64,000 nt of DNA. Source: Microbacterium sp. LWH13-1.2 (lineage in GTDB: Bacteria > Actinomycetota > Actinomycetes > Actinomycetales > Microbacteriaceae). Of this stretch, positions 47,783 through 64,000 are shown piece by piece. The notes beneath the pieces were generated by a model, which did no database searches, was not told where the DNA came from, and saw only the letters and a program-made list of their open reading frames with translations. How positions within the stretch are numbered: position 1 is the first letter of the stretch; each line of letters opens with the position of its first letter. The DNA lies in NCBI RefSeq assembly GCF_038397735.1, contig NZ_CP151635.1, forward strand, positions 1,922,001 through 1,986,000, written 5' to 3'. The translations under genes were made by a program, and so were the position numbers.

Positions 47783-49252
47783 ATGACGACGCCTGCAGGC
47801 TGGTATGACGACGGATCCGGGCGTCAGCGCTGGTGGGACGGCACGCAGTGGACAGAGCACTTCGCTCCGGTCGCAGAGCCTTCCGCGACCGAGGCAGAGC
47901 CTTCCGCGACCGAGGCAGAGCCTTCCGCGACCGAGGCAGAGCCTTCCGCGACCGAGGCAGATACGTCCCTCTCCGAGTCCTCATTCGCCGGCTACGACAC
48001 GGCAGCGACCGATGACGGCGCCGCCGCAGTCGATGAATCCCCCGGTGCCGATGCGACCCCTGAGTCCGCAGCAGCCGCCGAGACCGCGGCCTCGCTCGAC
48101 TCCGTGGCGGCCGTCGAGAGCCCTTCATGGAACGCGCCCGCCGGCGAGTCCATCGCAGCCGACTCGGGCTCCTCGTCGCCCGTAGACGAGGTCGCAGCTC
48201 CCGAGTCCGCCGCATCGTGGTCGACCCCCGAGACTCCTTCCGACGCATCGTCGACGGAATACACCGCGCCCGGCGCCACCACGCCGCTCGACGGCAACGT
48301 CCCTCCGTACGCGAACGCCGCGCCCGCCTACCCCGGCAGCGCGCCCGCCTACCCCGGCGCGGATGCAGGACAGACGCAGGCCTATCCCGCACCCGGCTAC
48401 CCGGGGGCGACCCCCAGCCACCCCGGTGCCAGCGCCTATGCGCCGGCAGGTCAGGCCTACGGCGCTGCGGGCGGCTACCCGCCCGCATACGCAGGTGCCG
48501 CACCCGCAGCGTCGACCAAGCCGTCCGTCCTCGGCATCGTCGGCCTCGGCCTCGCAGCCCTCGGCACGATCCTGTCGTGCGTCCCCGTGATCCTCGGATT
48601 CGGGTGGCTGCTGCTCGCCGCCGGCTTCATCGTCTCGCTGATCTCGCTCTTCCTCAAGGGCAAGAAGTGGCCGGGCATCTCGGGCCTCATCCTCTCCGTG
48701 GTCGGCGCCATCGTCGCCGTCGTGATGGCGTTCGTCTTCATCTTCGCGACCGTGGCCGAAGCAGTGCGCGATCTGCCGACCGCACCCCCGTCCAGTGACT
48801 CCGATACCGACAACGGCACCGACCCCGGCACCGACGACGGAGACACGGGCCCCACGGATGTCGTCGAGGGCGAGCTCGGCTCCCCTGTCACGATCGAGCA
48901 GATGTCGGGCACCAGCGAGGTCACGATCAACTCGGCCACGTGGGCGACGTCGGACGGATCGAGCATCCCCTCCACCAACGGCGGCTATGTGATCCTCGAC
49001 GTCACGTTCACCGGCGTCTCGGGCACGAGCTACATCAACCCGTTCTACTTCGCACTCGAGACCGCCGAAGGCGCCGAAGGCACCTACGACTACTACGTCG
49101 ACGGAATCGTTGCGGAGGAGCTCGCCGCCGGTGACACCGTCAACGGCAAGATCACCTTCGACGTCGCGCAGAGTTCCTCGTACGAGATCATCTTCACCGA
49201 TGAGCTCCTGCAGGAGGTCGCACGCGTCTCGTTCACTCCGTCCGCCGGCTGA
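47783..49252 (+). CDS. DUF2510 membrane protein with DUF4352-like extracellular domain
   Basis: 489 aa. The N-terminal DUF2510 motif (TPAGWYDDGSGRQRWWDGTQWT) is followed by a long Ser/Ala/Glu-rich region with four AEPSATE repeats, a Pro/Tyr/Gly/Ala-rich stretch (NAAPAYPGSAPAYPGAD), and two transmembrane helices (~250-275 and ~295-325). An extracellular beta domain of about 120 residues (LGSPVTIEQMSGTSEVTINS onward) resembles DUF4352. ATG 47783 has GAGGGGG upstream. It is a paralogue of the next gene. Function unknown; probably envelope. Confidence 0.83.
   Translation: MTTPAGWYDDGSGRQRWWDGTQWTEHFAPVAEPSATEAEPSATEAEPSATEAEPSATEADTSLSESSFAGYDTAATDDGAAAVDESPGADATPESAAAAETAASLDSVAAVESPSWNAPAGESIAADSGSSSPVDEVAAPESAASWSTPETPSDASSTEYTAPGATTPLDGNVPPYANAAPAYPGSAPAYPGADAGQTQAYPAPGYPGATPSHPGASAYAPAGQAYGAAGGYPPAYAGAAPAASTKPSVLGIVGLGLAALGTILSCVPVILGFGWLLLAAGFIVSLISLFLKGKKWPGISGLILSVVGAIVAVVMAFVFIFATVAEAVRDLPTAPPSSDSDTDNGTDPGTDDGDTGPTDVVEGELGSPVTIEQMSGTSEVTINSATWATSDGSSIPSTNGGYVILDVTFTGVSGTSYINPFYFALETAEGAEGTYDYYVDGIVAEELAAGDTVNGKITFDVAQSSSYEIIFTDELLQEVARVSFTPSAG
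47873..47956. repeat. Four 21-bp tandem repeats in the DUF2510 gene
   Basis: Four exact copies of GCAGAGCCTTCCGCGACCGA plus G, in frame, encoding AEPSATE each. Exact identity at DNA level suggests recent expansion or contraction by slippage. Confidence 0.95.
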
Positions 49253-49275
49253 GCTTCGAGCACGGAGCACCAGGC

Positions 49276-50427
49276 ATGACGACCCCGGCGGGGTGGTACG
49301 ACGACGGTTCAGGCCGTCAGCGTTGGTGGGACGGAGTCGCGTGGACGGAGCACACCGTCGCGGCGCAGGCTCAGACCATCGCGCCGGCTTCTGCCAGCAC
49401 GCAGCAGCAGGGTTCCGCGCAGCGGCCGGATTCCCCACAGCAGCAGGCGGCACCGCAGGACACCGCCGCTGACGGCATCGCCACGCCCGCTGTCGACGCT
49501 CCCGGGCAGTCGACAGCGGGCGTGGATCCGGTCGTCGGCAGCCCGACATCCCCCGCGACCGAGTCTGCGACGTTCGAGCCACCGTACATTCTGCAGACGG
49601 CGAATTCGGCCGCCGCGCACCCCGGGCCCGCTGCAGGTGCGCCCGTCTGGGGTCAGGCGCCGGTGTACGGCCAGCAGGGCACTGCCTACCCCGCACAGGG
49701 TGCGACCGCTCCCTTCGGAGTGATCGCTCCCCCGCCGGCGAAGCCGAAGCTCTCTGTTCTCGGCATCATCGGTCTCGCCGTCGCGGTGATCGGACTCGTC
49801 CTGTCCTGCTTCCCCTCGATCGCGATCGCAGGCTGGGTGCTGTTGGGAGTCGGTTTCGTCGTCTCCTTGGTGTCGGTGTTCCTCCGCGGAACGAAGTGGC
49901 CGGGAATCGTCGGCATCGCCGTGAGCGTTCTCGGAAGCATCGTCGCGATCGCGGTGACGCTCCTGTCGCTCAGCACGGCTGCCCCCGACGCGACAGCACC
50001 GACATCATCGACCGGCTCCTCATCGGATGGCGAGGAACCCGACGAGTCGGCGGCTGAGGGTGCCGAGAGGGTCTACATCAACGACCTCGAGGTCGGTCAC
50101 TGCCTCCCCCTGGTCGAGTGGGAGGACGAGGTCTACGACCTTCCGGTCGTCCCGTGCGATCAGCCGCACACCGATGAGGTCTACTTCATCTTCGATGCGC
50201 CGGACGGCGACTTCCCCGGTGACGCCGAGCTGCAGAACCTCGCGACCGAAGGCTGCGACGCCGCCTTCGAGGAGTTCATCGGCATCCCGTACGCGGACTC
50301 GGTGCTCGACAACTACTGGTTCGTGCCCACGGAGACCTCATGGAAGCGCATGGACGACCGCGCCATCCAGTGCATCGTGTTCGACTACGAAGAGGTCACG
50401 GGAACGCTCGAAGGCGCCGCCCGCTGA
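49276..50427 (+). CDS. DUF2510 membrane protein with septum-formation-type domain
   Basis: 383 aa. DUF2510 motif at the start (TPAGWYDDGSGRQRWWDGVAWT), a Gln/Pro/Ala-rich linker, two transmembrane helices (~157-210) and an extracellular domain with the pattern VGHCLPLVEWEDEVYDLPVV-PCDQPHTDEVYF and later Cys residues, as in the actinobacterial septum formation family. Its first half is a clear duplicate of the preceding gene (start 23 bp after it). It ends 7 bp before the convergent prfB stop. Confidence 0.83.
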   Translation: MTTPAGWYDDGSGRQRWWDGVAWTEHTVAAQAQTIAPASASTQQQGSAQRPDSPQQQAAPQDTAADGIATPAVDAPGQSTAGVDPVVGSPTSPATESATFEPPYILQTANSAAAHPGPAAGAPVWGQAPVYGQQGTAYPAQGATAPFGVIAPPPAKPKLSVLGIIGLAVAVIGLVLSCFPSIAIAGWVLLGVGFVVSLVSVFLRGTKWPGIVGIAVSVLGSIVAIAVTLLSLSTAAPDATAPTSSTGSSSDGEEPDESAAEGAERVYINDLEVGHCLPLVEWEDEVYDLPVVPCDQPHTDEVYFIFDAPDGDFPGDAELQNLATEGCDAAFEEFIGIPYADSVLDNYWFVPTETSWKRMDDRAIQCIVFDYEEVTGTLEGAAR

Positions 50428-53463: not shown

Positions 53464-53880
53464 TCATCTCAGCGCCGTGCGACTCGTGCCGGTCGCCTCG
53501 AGCTGCACACCGTCGGAGATGAACAGCGACAGCAGCGGCGGATTCCACTCGGCGGCGACCGTCACCCGAGCCGAGAGTCCGTCGGGTGCGGTGGCTGACA
53601 GCAGATTCGCGTCGCCCGGCCACTCGGCGACCAGCGCGACCGCCTGCTCTCTGACGCCCTGATCGGTGAGGTCGGCGTGCACCGTCGCCCCGTCGACGAC
53701 CACCGTGAACCCGTCGGCTCCGGCGAGCGCTGCCGCGTCGGCGAGCGCGTCGAGCCGCTTCTGGGAGATGTACAGGTCGGTGGCGCACACGCTCACGAAG
53801 ATCAGTGCGAGAGCGAGCAGCGCGTATCCCAGCGTGAGGAGCAGCACGCTCCCGTCGTCGTCTCTCACCCCGCGCCCCAT
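53464..53880 (-). CDS. TadE-like / secretion-associated pilus protein (last gene of tad operon)
   Basis: 138 aa. After a short N-terminus (RDDDGSVLLLTLGYALLALALIFVSVCATD) comes one transmembrane helix, then KRLDALADAAALAGADGF, the pattern of Rv3660c/TadG-type helicase-secretion neighbour proteins, and an extracytoplasmic beta domain. Its start overlaps the previous gene by 16 bp. It probably belongs to Flp pilus assembly. Confidence 0.82.
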   Translation of the reverse strand: MGRGVRDDDGSVLLLTLGYALLALALIFVSVCATDLYISQKRLDALADAAALAGADGFTVVVDGATVHADLTDQGVREQAVALVAEWPGDANLLSATAPDGLSARVTVAAEWNPPLLSLFISDGVQLEATGTSRTALR

Positions 53881-54296
53881 AGCCTCGAGACCTTCTGCAC
53901 CGCGGTTCCCTCGACAGAGACGGATGCCGCCTCATCCAGCCCGAAGATCGCCGGAACGAACGGCAGCGAGACCCTCGCTGCAACCACGACCGTGATCGTC
54001 GCACCCGCGGACGGGCAAGCCGCGATCTCGGGACCGCAGGTCACGGTCACATCGGCCGAATCGGGGTCGATGCCGTATTGCTCTGCGACGCTCGCGAGCA
54101 CGCGTTCTCCGCTCAGCTCCGCACTGTCCGCATCCGACGCGAGGGCGATGGCCCGCGCCGTGTGTCGGGCCGCCGCCTCCGCGCCGAGCGCCTGCTCCTG
54201 GATCGCGCCGAGCGCGATGATCAGGTAGACGAGCGGCACGAGCAGCACCACCCCGACGGCGATGAACTCGAGAGCCGCGGAGCCGTCGTCATCCAT
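53865..54296 (-). CDS. TadE-family pilus protein
   Basis: 143 aa. DDDGSAALEFIAVGVVLLVPLVYLI is the TadE-type N-terminus: a Glu five residues into the hydrophobic stretch, as in pseudopilins. An extracytoplasmic domain with two Cys (CGPEIAAC) follows. ATG 54296 overlaps the upstream stop in ATGGATGA. It is one of two TadE paralogues in tandem, minor pilus components. Confidence 0.85.
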   Translation of the reverse strand: MDDDGSAALEFIAVGVVLLVPLVYLIIALGAIQEQALGAEAAARHTARAIALASDADSAELSGERVLASVAEQYGIDPDSADVTVTCGPEIAACPSAGATITVVVAARVSLPFVPAIFGLDEAASVSVEGTAVQKVSRLWGAG

Positions 54297-54699
54297 CGCC
54301 GAACGACTCTTCCGGAGCATGCGCCTCCACCTCCAGCGCGAAGGGGATGCCGATCAGCCCGATCACCGGCAGTGTGGTCCGCACGCGCACGTCGATCGTC
54401 GGCTGCCCGAGCGACGTCGAGCGCCCGATGGTCACGTCCTCGGCATACGCCTCTCCGACAGCACGGACGATCTGTGCGCGCGCACGCTCTGCGCCGTCCT
54501 CGAGGCTCGTGTCGGCGAGTGCAGCGTGATACGCCCCCTCGACGGCCGAATCGTGCACGACGTTGCGGACGTACACCGCAAGAGCGAGCTGCATCACGGC
54601 GAGCGTGAGCAGAGTGAGCAGGGTCCCCACCATCACGAACTCGACCGCGCTCGAACCGCGTTCGTCGAGAAGTCGGCGACGGATCGTCGGGTTGGGCAT
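54289..54699 (-). CDS. TadE-family pilus protein
   Basis: 136 aa. LDERGSSAVEFVMVGTLLTLLTLAVMQLAL is the processing-type N-terminus, followed by a periplasmic-type domain ending FALEVEAHAPEESFGDG. First intact gene of the pilus operon on this side; the gene before it is truncated by the mobile element. The genes for ATPase and platform proteins, usually upstream, are not in the window. Confidence 0.87.
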   Translation of the reverse strand: MPNPTIRRRLLDERGSSAVEFVMVGTLLTLLTLAVMQLALAVYVRNVVHDSAVEGAYHAALADTSLEDGAERARAQIVRAVGEAYAEDVTIGRSTSLGQPTIDVRVRTTLPVIGLIGIPFALEVEAHAPEESFGDG

Positions 54700-54714: not shown

Positions 54715-54840
54715 TCAGATGCCCGACACGCGTTGGATCGCCTGTTCGAACAGAGTGCTCAGTGCGGGACCCGCGACCGCCCAGATCAGCACGACGAGTC
54801 CGGCGGTCATGAGTGTGACGAGAACCCAGCCTCTAGTACT
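54715..54840 (-). pseudogene. 3' remnant of a small pilin-like tad gene
   Basis: The leftward frame ends ...RGWVLVTLMTAGLVVLIW, continuing AVAGPALSTLFEQAIQRVSGI and a stop 15 bp before the TadE start. It is the hydrophobic C-terminal half of a short Flp-pilin-like protein of the kind that precedes tadE in actinobacteria. Upstream the frame runs into the integrase region without any start of such a protein. The 5' half should lie at the far end of the mobile element, outside the window. Confidence 0.65.
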
Positions 54841-54849
54841 CTTGCACCT
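54825..54849. other. Left attachment site (attL), approximate
   Basis: The host pilin frame is intact up to about 54836 and the integrase ATG is at 54850, so the junction lies in this short interval. Serine integrases typically lie next to one att site and share only a few bases between sites, so the crossover dinucleotide cannot be fixed without the right end. Confidence 0.5.
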
Positions 54850-56382
54850 ATGTCTGACCCTCGCGACCTCGTGGACCTGTATCTGCGGCTCAGCGTAGAC
54901 CGCGACGGCAAGGACTCCCTAGAGCGCCAAGAAAAGGACCTTCGAGCCTGGGCGACGCGGGAGGGTCTGACAGTGCGCACCGTCTGGGCCGACAAGGTGT
55001 CGGGATTCAAGAAGGTGAATCGCGACGACTTCGACGGGGCCGTATCCGCTGTTAGCTCGGGCGAGGTCGGCACGCTCGCCGTGTGGAAGTTGGATCGTCT
55101 CTCGCGTCGCGGCGCCGGTCAGGTCGGTCTCGTGCTCGATGATGTCGAGGAAGTCGGCGGGCGTCTCTTCTTCCTCAAGGATTCACTCGATTCCACAGTG
55201 CCCGGTCACCGCATGGTCATCTTGGTTGTCTCGGAACAGGCGCGGGCTGAGTCCGCGAATACGTCTCTTCGAGTCCGCGACAAGATCGCCAAAGATGCCG
55301 CGAAGGGCATTCCCAAGAAGGGCACGCGGCCATTCGGGTATGAGCCTGACGGGATCACCCTTCGACCCTCAGAGGCCGACCTGATCCGCGATGCTGTGGC
55401 CGACGTGCTCGCCGGTGAGCGGTCCATGCTCAGGATCGCGAAGGATTGGACGGAGGCCGGGGTGCTCACTGACGGCATGAAGCGGGAGCGCCGGGGCAAG
55501 GACGGTATCAAGAAACCAGCACTCCGCCGTTGGACGGCCACCACGGTACGGAGTGTGCTTCTCCGGGAGCGTAATGCGGGCCTCTTGGTGCATGAGGGTG
55601 TGGTGATGCCGGTGAGCCTGATCCAGTCGATCATCACTCTGGAGGATCACGACAATCTCAAGGCACGTGTCAAGGTCGGCATTCCTCTGAGTGGGCGCGC
55701 ACACTCTCTACTGGGCGGGATCATCCGGTGCGGAGAGTGTGACGCCACCATGCACGGCACGATTGCCTACTCACAGCGCAAGGGCGGGCCTAGGAACGTC
55801 TATCGCGTTTACAAGTGCCAGAACACCCTCTACGACAAGAGCCGCCGCCACGCGAGCATTCAGGCGCCCATCGCTGATGATCTGTTCGTCGGGTTCATCT
55901 TCCGTGATCTGTTTGTCGATGAACTCCACTCCCCCGAGACGGACGACCGGACAGCGGCGCTCAAGGCCGTCACAGCCCGCCTGGCGAGCTTGGTGGAGAG
56001 CATCGAGCACGTGGGTCATGTCCTGCTGGACCCAAGCCTGAAGAGCCTACACAGCCAAGCGCGGGGTGAATTGAAGGTGCGCGAAGCGGAGCGATCCGGG
56101 CTCGAGCAAGAGCGAGACGCTTTGCTGGCCCAGACTGTGGACGGTGGCGCTCTCGCCGCTTTTATAGCGGAATGGCGAAGCCGGGGCGAAGGGTTTTCGG
56201 ATGAAGCCGACATGGAGGATTGGAACCGGCGCTTTTGGGCTGCGTGGGAGGGTGTTGGCCTGGACGGCCAGCGGGCCATGATCCGAGCGCGATACAGGCC
56301 CTCGGTTCGAGTGGGAGGGCGGGGCGTCGGCAGAATCAGCCCCCACCCCATCAATCCAGTCACGTTCGGGCAACCGGTCTAG
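54850..56382 (+). CDS. Large serine recombinase (integrase)
   Basis: 510 aa. N-terminal resolvase domain: LYLRLSVDRDGKDS with catalytic Ser15, and VWKLDRLSRRG. The recombinase domain follows (KGIPKKGTRPFGYEPDG, ~152-168), then a zinc-ribbon with Cys294, Cys297 and Cys323; the usual fourth Cys seems replaced by His334. A coiled-coil segment (~385-435) comes before the C-terminus. It integrates and, with a helper, excises the element at att sites. It starts 10-15 bp from the junction. A TACTCT at 54837 with 7 nt to the ATG suggests a leaderless message. Confidence 0.95.
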   Translation: MSDPRDLVDLYLRLSVDRDGKDSLERQEKDLRAWATREGLTVRTVWADKVSGFKKVNRDDFDGAVSAVSSGEVGTLAVWKLDRLSRRGAGQVGLVLDDVEEVGGRLFFLKDSLDSTVPGHRMVILVVSEQARAESANTSLRVRDKIAKDAAKGIPKKGTRPFGYEPDGITLRPSEADLIRDAVADVLAGERSMLRIAKDWTEAGVLTDGMKRERRGKDGIKKPALRRWTATTVRSVLLRERNAGLLVHEGVVMPVSLIQSIITLEDHDNLKARVKVGIPLSGRAHSLLGGIIRCGECDATMHGTIAYSQRKGGPRNVYRVYKCQNTLYDKSRRHASIQAPIADDLFVGFIFRDLFVDELHSPETDDRTAALKAVTARLASLVESIEHVGHVLLDPSLKSLHSQARGELKVREAERSGLEQERDALLAQTVDGGALAAFIAEWRSRGEGFSDEADMEDWNRRFWAAWEGVGLDGQRAMIRARYRPSVRVGGRGVGRISPHPINPVTFGQPV

Positions 56383-56476
56383 TCCCCCGCATGTTCGATG
56401 CGGGCGTGCCCCTTCGACCACCGACCAGACAGCCTGACCCCGTGCCCGCGAAGATGCCTCAGATATATTCGCGAGC

Positions 56477-57172
56477 ATGGAGCAACGCTACGTATTCGAC
56501 CTGACGTTCCCGACGGGTAATCCCGAGCAGAGGGTTCACCTGAAGTTCGAAGGTGGTGGAGACGAGCTGGTGTTTCCACTCATCGCCGCCGCCTTCGCAC
56601 GGCTGGGGCGACACGAAGACGGCACAACCGGCTTCTTGCTCTCACCTGCGGACGCACTCGACCATGACCAAGGCGTCGAGGATTCGCAATTCCTACTCCT
56701 CGAAGGACACGAGACAGCGCATGACCTTCGATTCCTCATCGGTCCGAACGACGACGCGGTGTTCCTGCGCACCGGCGGGTGGGGCGGCACGGGCCTTCCC
56801 GAGATGTACAACTGGGTGCTCAGTGATCTGCTGCCGTTCGGACGCACCTTTTTAGAAGTCTACGGAGCCGTGGAGTTCATCAAGGTAGCTGGCCGTGCAG
56901 TCGAAGCCAGGAAGAACCGAGAACTGCGGCGCGAGGCAGAGGCATGGCTAAGGTCCGACAGCAAGGAAGTGTGGGGCTTGCTACTAGACGCGGTTAGGCG
57001 CTCAGATGCTTGGCCCGTCGACGACCTGACTAGAACGTTCGCGTTGTCGATCACGGACGCAACGCGCCTGATGACAGTGTGCGGATACACGTACGATCCG
57101 GCCTCGCGGTGCTACTACCGGATGAACGCGTACCCCGGACTGTTCGACCAGTTGGACGGCGGAGGCGCGTGA
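56477..57172 (+). CDS. Hypothetical protein of the mobile element
   Basis: 231 aa, acidic, soluble. A beta-rich N-terminal half (YVFDLTFPTGNPEQRVHLKF, then GGWGGTGLPEMYNW) is followed by an amphipathic helical part (VEARKNRELRREAEAWLRSD) and a small C-terminal domain. I recognise no family. No obvious ribosome site precedes the ATG. It ends 6 bp before the convergent gene. Confidence 0.65.
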   Translation: MEQRYVFDLTFPTGNPEQRVHLKFEGGGDELVFPLIAAAFARLGRHEDGTTGFLLSPADALDHDQGVEDSQFLLLEGHETAHDLRFLIGPNDDAVFLRTGGWGGTGLPEMYNWVLSDLLPFGRTFLEVYGAVEFIKVAGRAVEARKNRELRREAEAWLRSDSKEVWGLLLDAVRRSDAWPVDDLTRTFALSITDATRLMTVCGYTYDPASRCYYRMNAYPGLFDQLDGGGA

Positions 57173-57178
57173 TCGGCC

Positions 57179-57460
57179 TCAGAAAGGGCTGAACCTGGCA
57201 CGGATCGCATCATGCAAGGTCGGCTGCGACGGGTAACCCTGCTGCCTAGGATCAAACGACCCGTCTTCGAGGCGGTAGACGGTCGCCTGAAGTCCGAACT
57301 GTCGATGTGCCTGCCATGCGTGCTCGCCGGTTCGTAGCACATTGATCTCTACGGCGCTCGTCTCCCCGTGGAACTCGATGATGAATTCGTAACCCACCGG
57401 CTTCTTGATTGCGTCGTCTGGTTGGAGGTCGTCGTGGTCTTTCGTCATGTACTTAGCCAT
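57179..57460 (-). CDS. Hypothetical small protein
   Basis: 93 aa. A Lys/Asp-rich start (MAKYMTKDHDDLQPDDA) is followed by a compact mixed alpha/beta sequence with GYEFIIEFHGETSAVEINVLR. No family recognised. It could start at GTG 57466. Convergent with the preceding gene, a layout often seen in element cargo. Confidence 0.5.
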   Translation of the reverse strand: MAKYMTKDHDDLQPDDAIKKPVGYEFIIEFHGETSAVEINVLRTGEHAWQAHRQFGLQATVYRLEDGSFDPRQQGYPSQPTLHDAIRARFSPF

Positions 57461-57597
57461 GCGCACAGATTACGTCCAACGAGAATGTCAGCGTTCCCCT
57501 GCGATCGACCCCGGCTTCTACATCTGACACTACGCATCGATCATCTGCACGGCGTTGGACCGGGACCGAACGAGCGGAGATCAAGACAAGGGCCGGA

Positions 57598-57741
57598 TCA
57601 TCGCGGCAGGACTAGCCGCCCACACTCCCAGCACTGCCAGATGGGGCCGCGATGCGTCGTGCAGACGGTCATCGAGATAGAACAGTGGGCGCACGTGGGT
57701 GGGTTCGCGAGGTCTAACGCGGGTAAGTGGGAGTCATTCAC
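57598..57741 (-). CDS. Zinc-ribbon-like mini-protein
   Basis: 47 aa from GTG 57741. It has two CxxC knuckles, CAHC (17-20) and CWEC (37-40), with another Cys and a His between (VCTTHRGPIWQ). The spacing fits a zinc ribbon. Trp/Cys-rich mini-proteins of this sort occur in actinophages. No ribosome site is visible at the GTG, so the start is uncertain. The opposite-strand frame is longer but unlike protein. Confidence 0.5.
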   Translation of the reverse strand: MNDSHLPALDLANPPTCAHCSISMTVCTTHRGPIWQCWECGRLVLPR

Positions 57742-57778
57742 GCTGGAAAACGTACTCAGCGATCCGCCCTGTCAGCGC

Positions 57779-57787
57779 TTATCCACA
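57779..57787 (+). other. DnaA box (consensus)
   Basis: TTATCCACA, a perfect DnaA-binding consensus, followed by the AT-richer GATATACACACAAG. It is a single box, so an origin cannot be claimed from it alone. Confidence 0.45.
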
Positions 57788-58048
57788 GATATACACACAA
57801 GAATGTAGCTGGGAGTTCGCTGGGAAGATGAAGGCACGATGTAGTCGCGCACTGTCTGCATAGCGGTGGATGGCGGCCTATGCCGACCCACAGCGGCCTT
57901 TTGGGCTACCTAGTACATGGGACCTAGACCCGTTACTCACCTTGTTACTCCCTCGGGATGTCTGTCGCCGCTCGTAGACTGAAGACGCAAGGTTCCGCCT
58001 CCCGATGACACCACACAGTGTCACCGGGAAACGACAACCGAGCACAGA

Positions 58049-58088
58049 GAAAGCCCCCGAGCCTGACAACTCATAAAGGGGGGCTTTC
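58049..58088. terminator. Rho-independent-like hairpin
   Basis: GAAAGCCCCC pairs with GGGGGCTTTC around about 20 nt. The A/T ends of the stem give it U-rich flanks on both strands. It probably ends transcription towards either side. Confidence 0.65.
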
Positions 58089-58260
58089 ACTGCGGAACAG
58101 GGCGACCTCAGTCCTCACAGGGACAGGGCCGGGGGCCGCTTCGTAGCTACCAACTGCGGAGCGGCCTTCCTGTCAGTGTACCTAGCCGAAATCTACGCGT
58201 GGGGTCAGACATTCCGCCTGAGCCTCCCGTCCACCTACCTCCCTGCTCTACGCTCAGTGC

Positions 58261-58458
58261 ATGGATAGATGGTTCACCGCGTACTTCAGACGCGACAACT
58301 CCGCGACGGGCAACACGGCTGTTCTTCTTTCAGAGGATGGCACCTATCCGGCGCGCCTCGCCTGGGAAGGCGGAGTGTACGAACTCGACTTCGCGCACGA
58401 TACGGCACCTGAAGCCCACTACGAGTACATCCATGACCTTCCGGAGAACTCGAACTAG
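58261..58458 (+). CDS. Hypothetical small protein
   Basis: 65 aa (MDRWFTAYFRRDNSATGNT...), acidic in its second half (FAHDTAPEAHYEYIHDLPEN). No ribosome site of note and no family. It stands alone, convergent with the resolvase gene. It could be a small regulator or spurious; codon use looks coding. Confidence 0.45.
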   Translation: MDRWFTAYFRRDNSATGNTAVLLSEDGTYPARLAWEGGVYELDFAHDTAPEAHYEYIHDLPENSN

Positions 58459-58482
58459 GCGGCAGGATCACGCCTCAAGGTT

Positions 58483-59043
58483 TCAGGCCGATTGAAGCAC
58501 GCGATACAACGTTGCAGGGCTGATCCCCACCATGCGCGCGATGTCGGCGCGAGTGTGATCACCGGAGCGAACTAGGGCCATGATCGTGGCCAGCTTCTTG
58601 GCATCCACCACTGACGGACGCCCGCCCACGTTCCCCTTGGCCTTCGCGGCTTCGAGACCGGCACGAGTGCGCTCAGCCATCGTGGCCCGCTCAAGCTCTG
58701 CGAACGCGGCGAGGATCGTCAGCATGGCCTTACCCATAGGACCAGCGCTGAGGTCGATCTGTTCCGTCAGACTCTTAAAGGTCACGCCCCGGTCGATCAG
58801 GGTCTCGATAACCTCCAGTACGTTGCGGGTGTTGCGGCCAAGGCGGTCGAGCTTCCACACAACGAACGTGTCTCCACGGTCCAGCCGGTCGAGTGCCTTG
58901 TCGAGTTCGGGGCGGGATGCCAACGCGCCACTCACGCCGTGATCCGTGTAGACCCGATCCACCTTCGCCTTGGTCATAGCCAGGTCCTGGGAGGCCGTGT
59001 CCTGATCCTTGGTGCTGACTCGCGTGTATCCGATGATCGCCAT
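58483..59043 (-). CDS. Small serine recombinase (resolvase/invertase type)
   Basis: 186 aa. IGYTRVSTKDQDTASQ carries the catalytic Ser10, followed by VVWKLDRLGRNTRN and AELERATMAERTRAGL, then a Hin-like C-terminal HTH (TRADIARMVGISPATLYRVL). The length and domains match Tn3-type resolvases. In a circular element it would resolve multimers; an invertase role is possible. A dyad directly at the start codon may be its site. No transposase is nearby. Confidence 0.93.
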   Translation of the reverse strand: MAIIGYTRVSTKDQDTASQDLAMTKAKVDRVYTDHGVSGALASRPELDKALDRLDRGDTFVVWKLDRLGRNTRNVLEVIETLIDRGVTFKSLTEQIDLSAGPMGKAMLTILAAFAELERATMAERTRAGLEAAKAKGNVGGRPSVVDAKKLATIMALVRSGDHTRADIARMVGISPATLYRVLQSA

Positions 59044-59048
59044 GCCTC

Positions 59049-59096
59049 AATACTCTCAAAACCCATCTGTCTCATCAAGACCTTGTGAGAGATATT
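59049..59096. promoter_or_regulatory. Candidate res/operator site of the resolvase
   Basis: AATACTCTCA (59049-59058) is repeated inverted as TGAGAGATATT (59086-59096), with an inner TCTCA/TGAGA pair at 59070 and 59086. It lies 5 bp upstream of the resolvase start, the usual place of res subsites. Confidence 0.4.
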
Positions 59097-59184
59097 TCTG
59101 CGATACCTTTTTGGGATCAGATCGGCACCGTACCGGCGCTCTCACCCACCCATCGTTTTTGATAGAGAACGTTCCAGGCATAGG

Positions 59185-59228
59185 ACAGCCCGCCCCATCG
59201 GACCTTGACGAAGGACGGGGCGGGCTGT
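59185..59228. terminator. Strong hairpin, third after the small-gene operon
   Basis: ACAGCCCGCCCC pairs perfectly with GGGGCGGGCTGT (12 bp) around 20 nt. It lies between the small-gene operon and the resolvase gene, both leftward. Confidence 0.75.
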
Positions 59229-59235
59229 GGAGGGT

Positions 59236-59261
59236 GTCACCCTTCCCTGTGAGAGGGTGAC
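59236..59261. terminator. Hairpin, second after the small-gene operon
   Basis: GTCACCC pairs with GGGTGAC around 12 nt, 7 bp from the neighbouring hairpin. Confidence 0.6.
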
Positions 59262-59264
59262 GGG

Positions 59265-59297
59265 TCTGTGCGCGCTGACAGAAGAAGCACGCACAGA
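59265..59297. terminator. Hairpin, first after the small-gene operon
   Basis: TCTGTGCG pairs with CGCACAGA around 17 nt, 8 bp after the last gene's stop. It is followed in the leftward direction by two more hairpins. Confidence 0.6.
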
Positions 59298-59305
59298 GGA
59301 CTTTT

Positions 59306-59533
59306 CTACTTCTGGGATTCCTCGGCGGCGAGAGCGGCCAGGCGAGCGACCTCGGCACGCTCGCCAGCGGTGAGGGTGGCGTGCTCGCCGCGCATCAGAC
59401 GGTCGGCCTCGCCTTCGCCGGTGAGCATCTTGCGGATATCCGCCTCAGTCCACGTCGTGAACTCTGCTTGCTCTACCTTCGCGGCCTTCTCTTGCTCGCG
59501 CAGAAGGGCGGCGAGTGCGTAGATGTCAGTCAT
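59306..59533 (-). CDS. Hypothetical small protein (last of four coupled genes)
   Basis: 75 aa, helical and charged: MTDIYALAALLREQEKAAKV with a coiled-coil look, then ADIRKMLTGEGEADRLM and an Ala-rich end. The start ATG 59533 overlaps the upstream stop in ATGACTGA. No family recognised. Confidence 0.6.
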   Translation of the reverse strand: MTDIYALAALLREQEKAAKVEQAEFTTWTEADIRKMLTGEGEADRLMRGEHATLTAGERAEVARLAALAAEESQK

Positions 59534-59672
59534 TCTTGGTTCCAATCCCTGCGAGGGTGCGCACGGTCACGTCGAGGTCTGCTACTTCGTCTTCGCTCAA
59601 CACGATTTCGCCGCGCACGTGAGCCAGGAGGGCGTCGAGGGTGGCGAGGAAGGCGTCATCCGTCACACTCAT
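59526..59672 (-). CDS. Hypothetical mini-protein (third of four coupled genes)
   Basis: 48 aa: MSVTDDAFLATLDALLAHVR, then GEIVLSEDEVADLDVTVRTL and a short tail. It fits exactly between its neighbours, with ATGA overlap upstream and an 8-bp overlap downstream, which supports it as a real gene despite its size. Acidic and helical; function unknown. Confidence 0.6.
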   Translation of the reverse strand: MSVTDDAFLATLDALLAHVRGEIVLSEDEVADLDVTVRTLAGIGTKND

Positions 59673-60070
59673 CTGTAGTCCTCATTCAAATGACGGAGCA
59701 CTTCGCCGTGATCGCGCCAGACCTTCTGGACGGCAAGCTTGCGGGCGGCGGGATCACTAATCTTGCGCGAGTACTCCAGCTTGGCGAACGCGGCCTTGAA
59801 AACTTGATACTCGTCGTCCTCACCGATCACCATGTCTTCGGGGGCTGGGCCAGTACCGAAGCGCTGACTGCCCCACTTTTGCACCTGCTCCTGCGGCGTA
59901 AGGTCCAAGAATGAACTCCCTAGACGATCCTTGGTCAGTTCGTATGTCTCCGGTGAGACCGTAAACGTCTCACCACGGGAGAGAACTCGGCCTGCGGCGG
60001 CGTCACCGGCGGCAGAGAAGGCGGGGAGGGTCAGCCCCGTGGCGCGGCAATGAAAAATCTTGTCAGTCAT
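59669..60070 (-). CDS. Hypothetical protein (second of four coupled genes)
   Basis: 133 aa. MTDKIFHCRATGLTLPAFSA, SRGETFTVSPETYELTKDRLG, then a helical half (VFKAAFAKLEYSRKISDPAAR). The ATG overlaps the preceding stop (ATGA). The size and coupling resemble small phage structural or head-joining genes, but I see no diagnostic motif. Confidence 0.6.
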   Translation of the reverse strand: MTDKIFHCRATGLTLPAFSAAGDAAAGRVLSRGETFTVSPETYELTKDRLGSSFLDLTPQEQVQKWGSQRFGTGPAPEDMVIGEDDEYQVFKAAFAKLEYSRKISDPAARKLAVQKVWRDHGEVLRHLNEDYR

Positions 60071-60576
60071 CGGGAAACTCCTAGGTACTTCGCGAGCGTT
60101 CGGGCGAACGCTTCGAGTTCGGGGAAGGTGTCAACGGCGCTCAGGAGAGCAAGACCGGCTTGGGGATCGCGGCGGATCATGACTTTCACAGCCTCTGTGA
60201 ACAACTCGGCCTCGGCCATGTACTCCGCCGATGAAGTGTCCGTAATGCCTAGCTCATCGATGAGCTTCGTCAGTACGTCGGACTCCGCCTTAATCATTCG
60301 AGCCTGATGCACTGGGCTACCGGTGAGCTTCGCCTGTCGGCGGGAGTCTCGGGCGTGATCCGCCGCTTCGATCAGCCGTGTGAGCACGTTCGCGGTCGTC
60401 GGTTCACCGTCGAGTACGCGCGCAAGCTCGCTCTTTCTGGCAATGGCGTAGCGTCCGACGCTCGACGTGGCGAGCGACATTTCCTTGGCGATGACGGAAT
60501 AGGGCACGCCGTCATCAAGCATTGTGTTAATGCGCGTGATTTGCGGGTGCAGTGCCACCGTGCTTTGTCGTGTCAT
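60067..60576 (-). CDS. HTH protein, possibly small-terminase-like (first of four coupled genes)
   Basis: 169 aa. The N-terminus forms a homeodomain-like helix-turn-helix (HPQITRINTMLDDGVPYSVI, then AKEMSLATSSVGRYA), followed by long helices (ARMIKAESDVLTKLIDELGI) and a C-terminal AVKVMIRRDPQAGLALLSAV. This order, HTH then oligomerising helices, fits small terminase subunits of actinophages as well as DNA-binding regulators. No large terminase gene is beside it. ATG 60576 has AGGAAG 8 nt upstream. Confidence 0.6.
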   Translation of the reverse strand: MTRQSTVALHPQITRINTMLDDGVPYSVIAKEMSLATSSVGRYAIARKSELARVLDGEPTTANVLTRLIEAADHARDSRRQAKLTGSPVHQARMIKAESDVLTKLIDELGITDTSSAEYMAEAELFTEAVKVMIRRDPQAGLALLSAVDTFPELEAFARTLAKYLGVSR

Positions 60577-60606
60577 ATGCGAACTTCCTAATAGAGAGTA
60601 GGAGGA

Positions 60607-60686
60607 GCGCAGAGGGACCAACGTTTTCGATCAGCCCACGGCGAAGGAGTCCAGACGAACTATCCGTGGGATCAACGCCTCTGCGC
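60607..60686 (-). promoter_or_regulatory. Structured RNA or terminator between initiator gene and small-gene operon
   Basis: A nested fold: outer stem GCGCAGAGG (60607-60615) with CCTCTGCGC (60678-60686), inner stem CCCACGG (60635-60641) with CCGTGGG (60664-60670). It lies just upstream of the four-gene operon, in its leader, and after the initiator gene. It could be a terminator, an attenuator or a small RNA. Confidence 0.45.
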
Positions 60687-60867
60687 CCTTCCTATGCTTT
60701 CTACTATCGCGCACTGGCATCCCAGAATGCGGGTCTCATCCCAGTGGATTTCGGGAAGCTCTCGCGCATTATCCAAAAATAGCTGATGCGATCTGCGGGC
60801 CTCTAATTCTCTCCAGGTCCACGGATACCTGACATTGCACACTAGGCGCTGATAATGGCGCACGGTG

Positions 60868-61512
60868 TTATTGGAGGCCATCGAGCGGGAGTGCGCCAAT
60901 CTCCGAAAGAAGCTCATCCATCCAATCAACCTGACTCTCTGCCGCGCCGGAGCGAGCCGGAGGCTCAGCGACGACAGGCGCGGGCGAGGAGGATTTATCC
61001 GACGAGGGGTTCTTCTCTTCCTGCGGATTCCTATTGTGGTTCCCCGTTTGCCACTCAGTGGTTCCCCGTTTGCCACTCAGTGGTTCCCCGCTTGCCACTG
61101 CTGGCTCAACAGTGGTCTCCTGCTTTCCGCTGCCCCAGTCGCGGTCCTTCACCTGCATAACATCCGTCACCAGTTGGTTGCGGACGAACCGGTACTCAGT
61201 CACTGGGGAGCCTCCGCCTGGGTTTCGATGCTTCCCAGTCGCAACCAGCACACCGGTCCGTTGCAGGTACGCGAGAACCTTTCGCACCGTAGGCTTGCTC
61301 ACTCCAGCTTCGTCGGCGAGCGTTCCCACGGATGGTCGAATGCGTTCTCCGCTCTTAAAAACACCGTGTCGCGAGAGCATCATGCTTACTGCGACGAACG
61401 GGGCGCGTCGGATCTTCGCCTTAGCGAGAGCGGCGTTGGGGAAGTGTTGCACGAACTCCTGGAACTCGAACGGCTTCAGGGCATCGGTCTTCCGGGTACG
61501 GTCTTGTACCAT
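60868..61512 (-). CDS. Winged-helix replication-initiator-like protein
   Basis: 214 aa. Residues ~10-110 form a winged helix with the segments FVAVSMMLSRHGVFKSGERI, PSVGTLADEAGVSKPTVRKV and YLQRTGVLVATGK, typical of phage or plasmid initiator and replisome-organiser proteins with an HTH. The second half is low-complexity and polar, and ends in an acidic helix (QVDWMDELLSEIGALPLDGL) that may bind a helicase or its loader. The repeat tract at 61036-61101 is in the linker. The initiator role is inferred from domain, repeats and leader; a transcription factor is possible. Confidence 0.7.
   Translation of the reverse strand: MVQDRTRKTDALKPFEFQEFVQHFPNAALAKAKIRRAPFVAVSMMLSRHGVFKSGERIRPSVGTLADEAGVSKPTVRKVLAYLQRTGVLVATGKHRNPGGGSPVTEYRFVRNQLVTDVMQVKDRDWGSGKQETTVEPAVASGEPLSGKRGTTEWQTGNHNRNPQEEKNPSSDKSSSPAPVVAEPPARSGAAESQVDWMDELLSEIGALPLDGLQ
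61036..61101. repeat. Three 22-bp tandem repeats (iteron-like) inside the initiator gene
   Basis: Two exact copies of GTGGTTCCCCGTTTGCCACT plus CA (61036-61057, 61058-61079) and a third with one internal change and a diverged end (61080-61101). Each unit has AGTGG...CCACT ends, so it is itself a dyad. The length is not a multiple of three, so each copy is read in a different frame: selection seems to be on the DNA, as for origin iterons. Confidence 0.85.
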
Positions 61513-61519
61513 TTTCTAG

Positions 61520-61607
61520 TTTCCAATTCATCGTTACCTCTCGGTCGGTCGAGAGGGAGCCAGCCCCGGTGCGGATGAATTGGGAAACGACGCGCCGGGG
61601 CTGGCTC
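61520..61607 (-). promoter_or_regulatory. Initiator-gene leader with interlocking stems
   Basis: In the leftward RNA, GAGCCAGCCCCGG (61607-61595) pairs perfectly with CCGGGGCTGGCTC (61569-61557). The loop of that stem carries TTTCCCAATTCATC (61587-61574), complementary to GATGAATTGGAAA (61532-61520) just before the initiator ATG. A small hairpin (CCTCTCG/CGAGAGG, 61556-61537) lies between. The two long pairings interlock as a pseudoknot or exclude each other. This suggests control of initiator expression, as in plasmid copy-number leaders. Confidence 0.6.
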
Positions 61608-61688
61608 ACCTAAGTGTGCGGGGTTCCGACATCCGCTGACGCCATATATATACGCCTCTTTACTACAATCGTCCAAAACGCGACAGGA

Positions 61689-62366
61689 TCAATTGGGGCG
61701 CTGTCGAGTTCGCCACTCGCGTTGATACTCTGCGGCGGCGGATCGACATTCGTCGCACCGGCACTTGTTGTTCGAATATCTCGAAATGGTGCCGTGCGGT
61801 GACACTGTGCCGTCCGGTCGTCGGAGGTTCCGCTTCTTCCTGCTCGCGCTCTTCGCTGCTCGGCAGACATCACAGCGACAGCGATTCTTGTTGTAGGCGG
61901 TGAGGCCGTGCTCGGGGGCTTGCTTGCGCGGCCTGGGTTCCGGCTTGACCTTGGCTACCGGCTTGTCGACGTACTTCTTGTTCTGACCCATCAGCGAACG
62001 GCGCTCTCGGATCTGCTCTTCAGTAGGCGTTCGAGTGATCGGTCCCCATGTCACGATTACCGGCCTTGGGCCGTCGTGCGTTGTGCCTTCCTCTGTCCAG
62101 CGACGCCCGCCTACGGGCTTCTGAGCGGCGCCTGACGGCTTTGGAGGGTTGCTTGCGGCCCATCGAGCGCGGTCTGCAAACTCGGCCTTAAGAGAGACCG
62201 CTAGGTCTGCACGCACCCTGCGCTCTTCATCTCTGGCCTTTACCACGATCAGAGCGCGGTCGACATCCGTCTGGGCGTCGGCGGCGAGCATCGTCAGGTA
62301 TCGACGGCGTAGCTCTGGGAGTGCGTCGAGCTCGTAAAGGGCTGAGACTGCATCTGAGAAGTTCAT
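61689..62366 (-). CDS. Protein with duplicated CRCxxC zinc-knuckle-like motif
   Basis: 225 aa. The N-terminal ~90 residues are helical, the middle is Pro/Lys-rich, and the C-terminus carries two copies of an HG-x4-Y-x4-CRCDxCR motif: Cys163/165/168 and Cys202/204/207, each with a preceding His-Gly and a following basic helix. This motif is frequent in actinophage and actinobacterial HNH-associated proteins and probably binds zinc and nucleic acid. ATG 62366 has AGAAGGG upstream. It lies upstream of the initiator leader on the same strand and may be co-transcribed. Confidence 0.6.
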   Translation of the reverse strand: MNFSDAVSALYELDALPELRRRYLTMLAADAQTDVDRALIVVKARDEERRVRADLAVSLKAEFADRARWAASNPPKPSGAAQKPVGGRRWTEEGTTHDGPRPVIVTWGPITRTPTEEQIRERRSLMGQNKKYVDKPVAKVKPEPRPRKQAPEHGLTAYNKNRCRCDVCRAAKSASRKKRNLRRPDGTVSPHGTISRYSNNKCRCDECRSAAAEYQREWRTRQRPN

Positions 62367-62570
62367 ATCCCTTCTACCTATCGCGCGAACTCGCTCGGCC
62401 TATTTCGGTGGCCCTACGACATCGAGATATGCCCTGAGGTTCCCGCACACGTGCCGCTATGTATGCCGTCCGAGGATTGCAGTGACGCCGACGGCGGCTG
62501 GGGGCGAGGTGCGGCGCGCGTCGCCACTAGTCTGGGCGGATCAGCTGAACCCGCCGTCGTGGAGATCGAT

Positions 62571-63866
62571 ATGCCACCTGCCTGCCCTTGCCAAGACGCG
62601 CACCGCCGACTTATGGACGTCCACGAAGACATCCATCGTGCGAGCGAGTCGTACTTCGATGCAGAGGAGTTCCGCCGGTTTCTTAACTCCGCCATACAGA
62701 ATTCTCGCGGGGTGAGCTTCCTACTTCAGAAGCGCAAGTCTCGATGGAACAACTTCGATGACTGGTATCTCAAGTGGCAGGACGAAGCGCGGGCCAATGA
62801 GGTCATGCGCTGGGGCGTTCAATCGAGAAACCGCATAGTTAAAGAAGAGGACTTGCGCACGCTCAGCGTCGCGGAGGTCACGTACTACGGGCCGCGCCTT
62901 CGCGAGGGCGAGGACGTGATCAACGTCCCACCGTCGTCCACGGTTGACGACATCATCAACGTCTACCGGGATCTGATCGCCCGCGATCGCCCAACCGGTC
63001 CTGGCACCATCCGAGTCTCCCGCAAGTGGTTCGACGATCAACTCCCACAGCATGAGTTGATTGCGGCCCTCCGCGAGCTTTACGCGGGGATCGCGAAATT
63101 GATTCAAGTTGCACACGAACAGTCCGGGGTCGGAGTGTGCGAACTAGGCGGGTTTCGGCGTCCGTGCGTCGACGCCAGCATAAGCGACGCCCCTCGGTGC
63201 TTTCCGCTCGCCCCGCCATCGGCGAGCATCGATGTGACGACCGGAACCATCTACGACGTTGAGTACGGAATCATCGAGATGGACGAGGACGCGGCTCTGC
63301 GCTCGATGGAGAAGTACGGGGAACCGATCGCGTTCGATAAGGGAGTGTTCGACGACGTGCCCGCTCGGATGGCGATGTCAAAAATCTTCCTTGAGAAGGA
63401 CGGGTATGCAGGATCGGTGCTCCTGTTTTACAGAGGCCTCAAGGTTGTTCGAGGCATACCGCTCGCGATCCCCGTCGACCAACCACGGGAGTTGATCTTC
63501 GAGCATGCAATCGAGATGCTAGGCGCAATGACCTTCGATGGAGTCATGTTCGCCTCTGAGACGTGGATTACGACGCTGGACGCACGCACCGGTAAACCAA
63601 AGAAGCGTTGGGCTAGCGGCTCGCCGCAGCAGACCGAGTTCTACGACAAAGATCCCGTCGGAGGTCGCGACGAGGCCCTCGTCGTCTACGGGCTTTCGAA
63701 GGACGGTCGTGCGCGCACGATCGCCGAGTTGTTCAGAAAGACGTCGGCAGGCTACGAGTACCGGACGTTCGTCGACAGCGACGACCCCAAGGATGTGCCT
63801 CAGATGCTGATGGGGCCGGTCTCCCGCGCCTGGGGCACTCACCGCGGGCAAAGGTCGAGCGAGTAG
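62571..63866 (+). CDS. Large unknown protein of the mobile element
   Basis: 431 aa, soluble. The N-terminal third has helical segments with LLQKRKSRWNNFDDWYLKWQ and WGVQSRNRIVKEEDLRTLSV, a WYxxWQ...RNxIVKEgDL pattern I have seen in widespread hypothetical proteins without assigned function. The C-terminal half is beta-rich (DVEYGIIEMDEDAALRSMEK, VLLFYRGLKVVRGIPLAIPV). ATG 62571 was chosen for GGAG 8 nt upstream; an upstream ATG at 62451 lacks support. It is divergent from the CRC-motif gene and could be cargo such as a defence gene, but nothing diagnostic is seen. Confidence 0.6.
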   Translation: MPPACPCQDAHRRLMDVHEDIHRASESYFDAEEFRRFLNSAIQNSRGVSFLLQKRKSRWNNFDDWYLKWQDEARANEVMRWGVQSRNRIVKEEDLRTLSVAEVTYYGPRLREGEDVINVPPSSTVDDIINVYRDLIARDRPTGPGTIRVSRKWFDDQLPQHELIAALRELYAGIAKLIQVAHEQSGVGVCELGGFRRPCVDASISDAPRCFPLAPPSASIDVTTGTIYDVEYGIIEMDEDAALRSMEKYGEPIAFDKGVFDDVPARMAMSKIFLEKDGYAGSVLLFYRGLKVVRGIPLAIPVDQPRELIFEHAIEMLGAMTFDGVMFASETWITTLDARTGKPKKRWASGSPQQTEFYDKDPVGGRDEALVVYGLSKDGRARTIAELFRKTSAGYEYRTFVDSDDPKDVPQMLMGPVSRAWGTHRGQRSSE

Positions 63867-64000
63867 TTCGACGGCCTGCACTTGATCGTGATCGGGCAGT
63901 AGTCGGCTCTTGGCACCGAGAGCGGCCACGGGCTGAGGTCAAAGCGCTTGTAGCGCCGAACCGGGAAGCGCCTCAGTGCTCGGTCCAGACTTCGCTCTCC
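63839..64000 (-). CDS. Partial gene at right edge (C-terminus only)
   Basis: The leftward frame is open from the window edge to a stop at 63839. It reads ERSLDRALRRFPVRRYKRFD, then LSPWPLSVPRADYCPITIKC and RPSNYSLDLCPR. Composition is protein-like with two Cys near the end. It overlaps the convergent gene by 28 bp. Function cannot be told from 53 residues. Confidence 0.35.
   Translation of the reverse strand, partial: GERSLDRALRRFPVRRYKRFDLSPWPLSVPRADYCPITIKCRPSNYSLDLCPR

What the first reader, a model, noticed from the sequence alone, without database searches (positions are those of the whole stretch)
54715..54849. Serine-integrase element integrated inside a Flp-pilin-like gene of a tad operon
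The leftward pilus operon is intact for two TadE genes and a TadE-like gene, but the gene before them is only a hydrophobic C-terminal fragment that ends at the start of a large serine recombinase. The pilus ATPase and platform genes are not on this side. Integration would therefore split the pilus operon and remove a pilin, and excision would restore it: a possible on/off switch for pili, like the excision-controlled genes of other bacteria.
Basis: partly seen in the sequence, partly recalled or inferred. Interest (0 to 1): 0.72.

Follow-up and report, generated by a model that had tools for sequence, protein, structure and literature searches.

The report
Mobile element splitting a pilus gene
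A 12-kb mobile element has inserted into a small pilus-operon gene of a Microbacterium, and different elements have cut the same operon again and again in related species, possibly because its pilus lets the cell take up DNA that could wash such elements out.

Summary
Window 54715-54828(-) is the C-terminal half of a Flp-sized gene in a Microbacterium chromosome. The N-terminal half lies 12,170 bp away, directly behind tadC, tadB and tadA. The element's ends are palindromic around the TG of codon Trp10, and a relative (G163) has the empty site. So a serine-integrase element split the tad-1 operon.

It is not a one-off. Of 315 same-genus genomes with this gene, 26 have it interrupted. In an unselected block, 22 of 97 have tad-1 cut in this gene, tadC or tadA, at about eleven recurrent codons. 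The inserts range from 7 kb to 50 kb; one was checked and is a prophage. Sister integrases hit different genes of this operon. Nine genomes in seven other genera of the order show the same split.

In Micrococcus luteus, deleting tad-1 genes abolishes natural transformation (PMC4322843). I read this as the actinobacterial form of mobile elements disabling competence, which protects them from being cured. That cause is inferred; nothing was tested in Microbacterium. A regulated on/off pilus switch is not supported: where resolved, elements, codons and integrases differ between species. My literature searches listed no paper on tad as such a target.

The parts
54715..54828 (-). C-terminal half of the split Flp-sized tad-1 gene (from codon Trp10 to the stop)
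   Evidence: intact copy in G163
54827..54828 (-). inferred crossover dinucleotide TG (first two bases of the Trp10 codon), left junction (attL)
   Evidence: palindrome centre of the joined element ends, 14/30 matched positions here and the same position in G330, G249, G299
54829..54849 (.). element-side attachment arm between crossover and integrase start (the arm palindrome also reaches into the integrase start codon)
54850..56379 (+). large serine recombinase (integrase), 510 aa
   Evidence: Pfam Resolvase, Zn_ribbon_recom, Recombinase
54828..64000 (.). integrated element, left 9.2 kb; it continues to G000:C1:1988998 (12,170 bp in all)
54289..54699 (-). TadE gene of tad-1, cut off from tadABC
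   Evidence: PF07811 1.4e-9
53865..54320 (-). second TadE/TadF-like gene of tad-1
   Evidence: conserved beside TadE in relatives; no Pfam hit
53464..53880 (-). TadG-like distal gene of tad-1
   Evidence: conserved beside TadE in relatives; no Pfam hit
58483..59043 (-). small serine resolvase of the element; closest counterparts in the elements of G330, G017, G355
   Evidence: PF00239 1.4e-42; 42-46% identity
59669..60070 (-). element ORF, 133 aa, shared with some sister elements
   Evidence: 30-42% over 78-88 aa to ORFs of G355, G017, G330
60067..60621 (-). element ORF, 184 aa, shared with some sister elements
   Evidence: 22-26% over 140-168 aa to ORFs of G017, G330
60868..61512 (-). replication-initiation-like protein, 214 aa
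   Evidence: phrog_391 2.8e-7; GntR-type HTH 3e-6
62451..63866 (+). element cargo ORF, 471 aa, unknown function
   Evidence: phrog_19262 2.6e-15

Best explanation
A 12.17-kb integrative element used its large serine integrase to recombine its attP with an attB inside the Trp10 codon of a small pilin-like gene of the tad-1 operon. This truncates that protein and separates tadABC from tadE/F/G (shown from sequence). The tad-1 operon is a preferred target of many independent serine-integrase elements across Microbacterium, and the same gene is split in other genera of the order (shown). Because the M. luteus counterpart builds the DNA-uptake pilus, each insertion most likely makes the cell non-transformable; this shields the element from removal by homologous recombination with imported element-free DNA, so elements that hit tad-1 persist (inferred, about 0.55-0.6).
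For: Split gene with both halves and an empty site in a relative. Integrase domains. Palindromic attP arms centred on codon positions 1-2: 16 of 20 pilin-gene loci scored and 14 of 15 tadC/tadA loci scored. Recurrence: 26 of 315 same-genus genomes with the pilin-like gene interrupted; 22 of 97 with tad-1 cut in an unselected handle block. Enrichment: 40 of 115 integrase hits within 15 kb of tad-1 where about 1 is expected, and 17 of 115 with a Pfam-ranked sample. Specificity: of 37 integrase hits in 45 ComEC-tested genomes none lies within 15 kb of ComEC. Sister integrases at different sites of the same operon: with the label correction. Uptake gear kept: ComEC-family gene in 45 of 45 genomes, second tad locus with a Flp-type gene in the own genome. 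M. luteus: deletion of any tad-1 ORF except tadB abolished transformation (PMC4322843).
Against: No transformation has been measured in any of these strains, and natural competence of Microbacterium is not shown here; the ComEC family is weak evidence, since it also rings in 10 of 14 control genomes, E. coli among them. The M. luteus deletions may be polar, and that Mlut_07530 is the homologue of the split gene rests on gene order, not on its sequence. Other tad genes are not more decayed in interrupted loci: real frame breaks in 2 of 54 interrupted against 2 of 76 uninterrupted loci, so insertions may be young or reversible. None of the 29 integrase loci read abuts tad-2 or comEC, whose loss should protect equally. 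Eight genomes, possibly nine, carry two insertions in the operon, which one disabling cut would not need.
Confidence: 0.6

Rival explanations
1. Safe harbour: the tad-1 genes are well conserved at DNA level and dispensable, so integrases that use them as attB are simply tolerated; no benefit comes from loss of the pilus.
For: Crossovers fall on the first two bases, the less variable ones, of conserved codons; operons with a first insertion often carry a second, as expected for an already dead locus.
Against: Several integrase lineages have sisters that hit another gene of the same operon, and 40 of 115 hits lie at one locus; many other conserved dispensable genes exist, though no matched control operon was surveyed here.
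Confidence: 0.2
2. Superinfection exclusion: the Tad pilus is a phage receptor, and prophages or satellites that break it keep competitors out.
For: The G162 insert is a prophage with terminase, portal, head and tape-measure genes, and six inserts of 40-49 kb occur in other genera. Tad pili as receptors of Caulobacter phages are recalled from memory, not looked up.
Against: Nothing here shows that actinophages use this pilus, and the own element, in which no phage structural gene was found among the ORFs scanned, does the same.
Confidence: 0.13
3. Regulated switch: the element excises under some condition and restores the pilus, as comK prophage or sporulation-gene elements do.
For: Excision at the TG core would restore the reading frame; neighbouring tad genes are mostly intact.
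Against: No element is conserved at the locus through the genus; integrases, codons and gene content differ where resolved; no directionality factor was recognised. A close relative (G162, TadE 98.5% identical) carries a prophage with a distant integrase at another codon.
Confidence: 0.07

Closest known systems
Prophages in comYC (competence pilin), comFA, comK and MGEs in comM (PMC4774983, passages seen; comYC again in PMC12637031, passages seen; comM in A. baumannii, PMC11472951, passages seen)
   Same: Mobile elements insert into coding sequence of DNA-uptake or competence genes, a pilin included; related integrases hit different competence genes (comK and comFA).
   Different: The species in the passages seen are Firmicutes and Proteobacteria. 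Here the target is the Tad-type pilus of Actinobacteria, with about eleven sites in one operon. I looked only for serine recombinases, so other insert types here may be missed. The words tad, Flp and Actinobacteria do not occur in the main text of PMC4774983.
Large serine recombinase atlas (PMC10083194, passages seen)
   Same: Reports strong enrichment of competence genes among serine-recombinase target genes and many unrelated enzymes on one target gene.
   Different: 'Pilus' and 'ATPase' do not occur in its main text; its supplement could not be read here, so a tad entry there cannot be excluded.
tad-1/tad-2 competence pilus of Micrococcus luteus (PMC4322843; sections 7 and 8 read, passages elsewhere)
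   Same: Two tad loci in the same layout: tadA-tadB-tadC-small ORF-tadE/F-tadG (the small ORF by position), and a second locus with fused tadB/C and a 77-aa Flp.
   Different: No mobile element is reported there in what I read; function was tested in M. luteus, not in Microbacterium.
Gene-intervening elements excised in development (gin in gerE, PMC5595907, search listing only; comK prophage switch, recalled)
   Same: A recombinase element splits a short coding gene and precise excision would restore it.
   Different: No sign of a conserved, host-timed element; repeated independent insertions instead.

Membership tests
Large-serine-recombinase integrative element | Integrase with N-terminal resolvase domain, recombinase domain and zinc ribbon | tested here: met
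   Pfam hits over cut-off
Large-serine-recombinase integrative element | attP with imperfect inverted-repeat arms around a 2-bp core, integrase gene next to it | tested here: met
   14/30 matched pairs for G000, same centre in G330, G249 and G299; integrase starts 22 bp from the core
Large-serine-recombinase integrative element | Empty site in a relative | tested here: met
   G163, flanks contiguous
Large-serine-recombinase integrative element | Excision with a directionality factor | not testable with these tools
   no reads or strain; no factor recognised by the family searches made
Mobile element that disables natural competence | Target gene needed for DNA uptake | tested here: inconclusive
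   shown for M. luteus tad-1 only (PMC4322843); ComEC-family gene and second tad locus present here
Mobile element that disables natural competence | Distant integrases converge on the pathway in many species | tested here: met
Mobile element that disables natural competence | Carrier strain is non-transformable and regains it on loss of the element | not testable with these tools
   needs strains
Excision-controlled gene switch | Same element kept at the same place through a lineage | tested here: not met
   26 of 315 genomes interrupted; the resolved ones by different elements at different codons
Tad/Flp pilin | Short prepilin with G/XXXXEY processing site | tested here: not met
   length fits (65-66 aa) but the motif is G/DVPGW; no significant Pfam hit. 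One UniRef member is named Flp pilin (P0050)
Prophage | Terminase, portal and head genes | tested here: not met
   none among the own element's ORFs scanned; met for G162's insert at another codon

The most novel reading that the evidence does not exclude
In Micrococcales the Tad-type competence pilus is a standing battlefield: serine-integrase elements, from 7-kb elements to prophages, repeatedly evolve new attachment sites inside the same operon (pilin-like gene, tadC, and tadA including the Walker-A lysine codon), so that in Microbacterium about a quarter of species carry a broken uptake pilus. Tad-driven transformation, and its use to purge mobile DNA, would then be widespread in Actinobacteria.
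Probability: 0.5. Interest if true: 0.82.

Novelty: new variant of a known kind. Interest (0 to 1): 0.66.

Why it matters
It would carry the conflict between natural transformation and mobile elements, known from pneumococcus and other Firmicutes or Proteobacteria, into the Actinobacteria and onto a different uptake machine. It also gives an indirect argument that Tad-dependent transformation works well beyond Micrococcus luteus, and it predicts which strains should be non-transformable. The data include natural sets of related integrases with different, codon-exact target sites.

Tried and rejected
Named relatives by integrase: scans of genome contigs and viral contigs with the own integrase found none; the second genome-contig scan, with TadA, gave names.

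The pattern search for the intact gene cannot tell insertions that lie behind the pattern; it was combined.

Decay of other tad genes as a test of permanent loss: one search flagged 6 of 54 interrupted and 6 of 76 uninterrupted loci; one search showed that the tadA stops and the tadE1 stops sit at the gene's end, which leaves 2 of 54 (G041, G251) against 2 of 76 (G070, G077). No difference. The P value printed belongs to an earlier count (4 against 2) and is not used.

Attachment centres: G192, G251 and G194 gave no centre agreeing with a group, and G276 a tie; L170 disagreed, L171 agreed but at chance score (8/30), L177 agreed only narrowly, and L162 was listed but not scored. L173 and L175 were left out because their matches overlap at the cut.

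G101's integrase was labelled as a pilin-site enzyme in the tree; searches show that it abuts a tadC cut near codon 297, so that label is wrong and its pairing with G355 (same tadC site) is not a switch.

The count of integrases near tad-1 inside the 45 ComEC-tested genomes (25 of 37) is no evidence, because 37 of those 45 genomes were picked for a cut tad-1; only the 0 of 37 near ComEC is used.

Isolated phage Maja: integrase 47% to a codon-15-site enzyme, clear palindrome behind the integrase gene, but its central bases differ from the pilin-gene core, so its target stays unknown.

Rejected: the canonical Flp gene as the target, because it is in the second locus.

Full report
What is there. 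The window is G000:C1:1922001-1986000 of a complete 3.77-Mb chromosome. The named records closest to its TadA are Microbacterium, the best being Microbacterium sp. Leaf320 at 96%. At 54715-54828 on the minus strand lies the C-terminal part of a Flp-sized gene, followed downstream by TadE (PF07811), a second TadE/F-like and a TadG-like gene. A 510-aa large serine recombinase starts at 54850 on the plus strand.

The far end. PF00437 and PF00482 searches put a pilus ATPase at G000:C1:1991039-1991872 and two platform genes at 1990179 and 1989148, all on the minus strand, 3 to 6 kb right of the window. In L002 the N-terminal half (MNTLRHSHGGGLTVARELLDDERGDVPGW) follows tadC at once and then runs into element DNA and a stop. 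In G163 the same gene is whole; each flank of the element aligns there and the two matches meet (88.6% over 1514 bp and 90.6% over 816 bp). Element length between crossovers is 12,170 bp.

How it got in. I laid the element's two ends together in a script (about 64 bp) and asked where they are most palindromic, given that the two central bases must be the same on both sides. For G000 the centre is the TG of Trp10 (14 of 30 positions paired; 7.5 is the plain expectation); G330, G249 and G299 give the same centre. This is how a serine-integrase attP looks (general knowledge); the integrase gene begins 22 bp from the core.

A recurrent event. With an intact relative's protein as query, 360 of 366 same-genus genomes gave a match at E<=1, many of them weak. 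A DNA pattern for the intact motif hit 303 of 366. Of the 63 without it, 12 have a C-half; 51 have no convincing trace of the gene. Fourteen more match the pattern but are cut within or behind it. So 26 of 315 genomes with the gene have it interrupted: 18 with both halves on one contig (1.1 to 50.6 kb apart), three with halves on different contigs, five with only the C-half found. G113 has an intact copy plus a scar and is not counted. In 21 of the 22 N-halves printed (G113's scar included) the reading frame meets a stop within about 30 codons; in G194, a 1.1-kb insert without an integrase, none is seen in the stretch printed.

Several sites, one operon. Palindrome centres group the pilin-gene insertions: codon 10 (G000, G330, G249, G299), codon 13 (G355 alone), codon 15 (G162, G109, G138, G099), codon 20 (G322, G175, G305, G065, G003) and codon 19 (G086, G263); 16 of 20 loci scored give one of these centres, G192, G251 and G194 do not and G276 is a tie. 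Loci around integrases that lie near an intact pilin-like gene, and the block census below, showed cuts in tadC at codon 286 and in tadA near codons 83, 159, 204-209 and 295; G101 and G355 have tadC cut near codon 297 instead. Of 15 tadC and tadA loci scored, 14 centre on codons 286 (7 of 7), 83 (4 of 4), 208 (1 of 2) or 295 (2 of 2, one of them at chance score). In every group so resolved the core is the first two bases of a codon; codon 208 is the lysine of the GATHAGKT motif (Walker A, from general knowledge).

How common. Handles G000-G106 with the pilin-like gene make 97 genomes, examined whatever their state: 22 have tad-1 cut, 9 in the pilin-like gene and 13 in tadA or tadC; an integrase next to a cut was seen in 19 (not in G041, G044, G081). 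G040 (integrase just before tadA), G067 (contig ends in tadA) and the odd 1.9-2.8-kb spacers of G016, G104 and G106 were not counted as cuts. Only serine recombinases were sought.

Is tad-1 special? About 1 is expected by chance for a 3.5-Mb genome, contig breaks ignored. That query was itself a tad-targeting enzyme, so I repeated with the Pfam Recombinase family: of 150 rows (again a capped list, best scores first) 115 were usable, and 17 are within 15 kb, 38 farther, 60 on other contigs. In 45 genomes with ComEC located, none of 37 integrase rows lies near ComEC. Of 29 integrase loci read with 1.5-kb flanks (L015-L043), 14 abut tad-1 genes and none tad-2 or comEC. No other operon was surveyed as a matched control.

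Integrase tree. 66 serine integrases, 15 of them from outside tad-1, cluster by site (18 label changes, least possible 11, shuffled mean 43.8). Sister relations cross genes: four codon-10 enzymes with the tadA-83 enzymes (96/79, below the strict mark; G249's codon-10 enzyme lies elsewhere), codon-20 enzymes with twelve of sixteen tadC enzymes (100/99), a codon-15 enzyme with the tadA-159 enzymes (100/95), codon-19 enzymes with two of the three tadA-295 enzymes (100/95). One row (G101) carried a wrong site label, found. Some branches are long and their placement unsure.

Beyond the genus. Among 376 genomes of the order (own genus included), 298 match the gene at E<=0.05. Of 19 low-scoring ones re-examined, nine (G453, G466, G396, G596, G671, G566, G520, G586, G689) show separated halves, some by weak matches; they fall in seven other genera of five families, six of the nine with halves 40-49 kb apart. 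An integrase lies beside a half in six loci with 1.5-kb flanks (G671, G596, G520, G566, G466, G396) and in the fetched G586 locus; none was seen for G453 and G689.

What the elements are. G162's 37.6-kb insert is a prophage: tape measure, portal, terminase and head genes; the other large inserts were not typed. The own element has no phage structural gene among the ORFs scanned, a replication-initiation-like gene and a small resolvase. Compared with 17 other elements, its resolvase has its best matches in G330, G017 and G355, two further ORFs have weak matches in some of these, a 97-aa stretch of a third in G263, and the rest none. It carries a SLATT-type membrane protein (Pfam SLATT_5 2.1e-25; PADLOC RTasSLATT 3e-48).

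What it does. In M. luteus two tad loci form the DNA-uptake pilus. Deleting any ORF of tad-1 except tadB abolished transformation, and tadB loss cut it more than 100-fold; polar effects were not excluded (PMC4322843, sections 7 and 8 read). The own genome has the same pair: tad-1, and a second locus with tadA, fused tadB/C and a 77-aa Flp with SGAATAEY. A ComEC-family gene is present in 45 of 45 genomes tested, 37 of them interrupted, in G192 in two pieces; the family also rings in 10 of 14 control genomes, so this says little by itself. Prophages in comYC and other competence genes, and their explanation as defence against curing by recombination, are described in PMC4774983 and PMC12637031 (passages). 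Serine-recombinase targets are enriched in competence genes (PMC10083194, passages). Putting these together, loss of DNA uptake is the likeliest effect and protection from curing the likeliest reason.

Against my reading. No strain has been tested. The pilin-like gene lacks the Flp motif. Doubly cut operons (G003, G086, G138, G263, G355, G101, G189, G305, and possibly G268, where one deletion could explain both) fit a dead-locus view too. Frame breaks in neighbouring tad genes do not differ (2 of 54 against 2 of 76 loci). Searches for earlier reports listed no paper on mobile elements in tad operons; the library lacks most subscription journals and no supplements could be read.

Noticed in passing
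L002:12310-12966 (G000:C1:1988310-1988966): SLATT_5 membrane protein matching PADLOC's reverse-transcriptase-associated SLATT model (3e-48); no reverse transcriptase was noticed in the element (none was searched for).
   Followed up: partly
window 47708-50427: Two neighbouring related genes that both hold MTTPAGWYDDGSGRQRWWDG, looking like a tandem duplication.
   Followed up: no
L159 (G113:C1:255000-264000): An N-half scar of the pilin-like gene with element-like sequence, and some 2.6 kb farther on a complete copy: looks like a locus where a whole gene was regained beside an old attachment remnant.
   Followed up: partly
L195, L259, L261 (G016, G104, G106): 1.9-2.8 kb of extra DNA between tadC and the intact pilin-like gene without a serine integrase; possibly old remnants.
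   Followed up: no
L393:2869-2929: Arthrobacter phage Maja carries both a serine and a tyrosine integrase, and a palindrome (20 of 30 pairs) right behind the serine integrase gene that looks like its attP; central bases differ from the pilin-gene core.
   Followed up: partly
L169, tadA codon 208: One attachment site sits on the Walker-A lysine codon of the pilus ATPase gene (centre resolved in this locus only).
   Followed up: partly
L355 (Microbacterium yannicii PS01): tadC is split at codon 286 by only about 0.4 kb with no integrase seen, like a decayed insertion.
   Followed up: no
L387 (marine actinobacterium PHSC20C1): tadC match stops at codon 288 and no match to the pilin-like gene follows within the roughly 6 kb held: possibly the tadC-286 type of insertion outside Microbacterium.
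   Followed up: no
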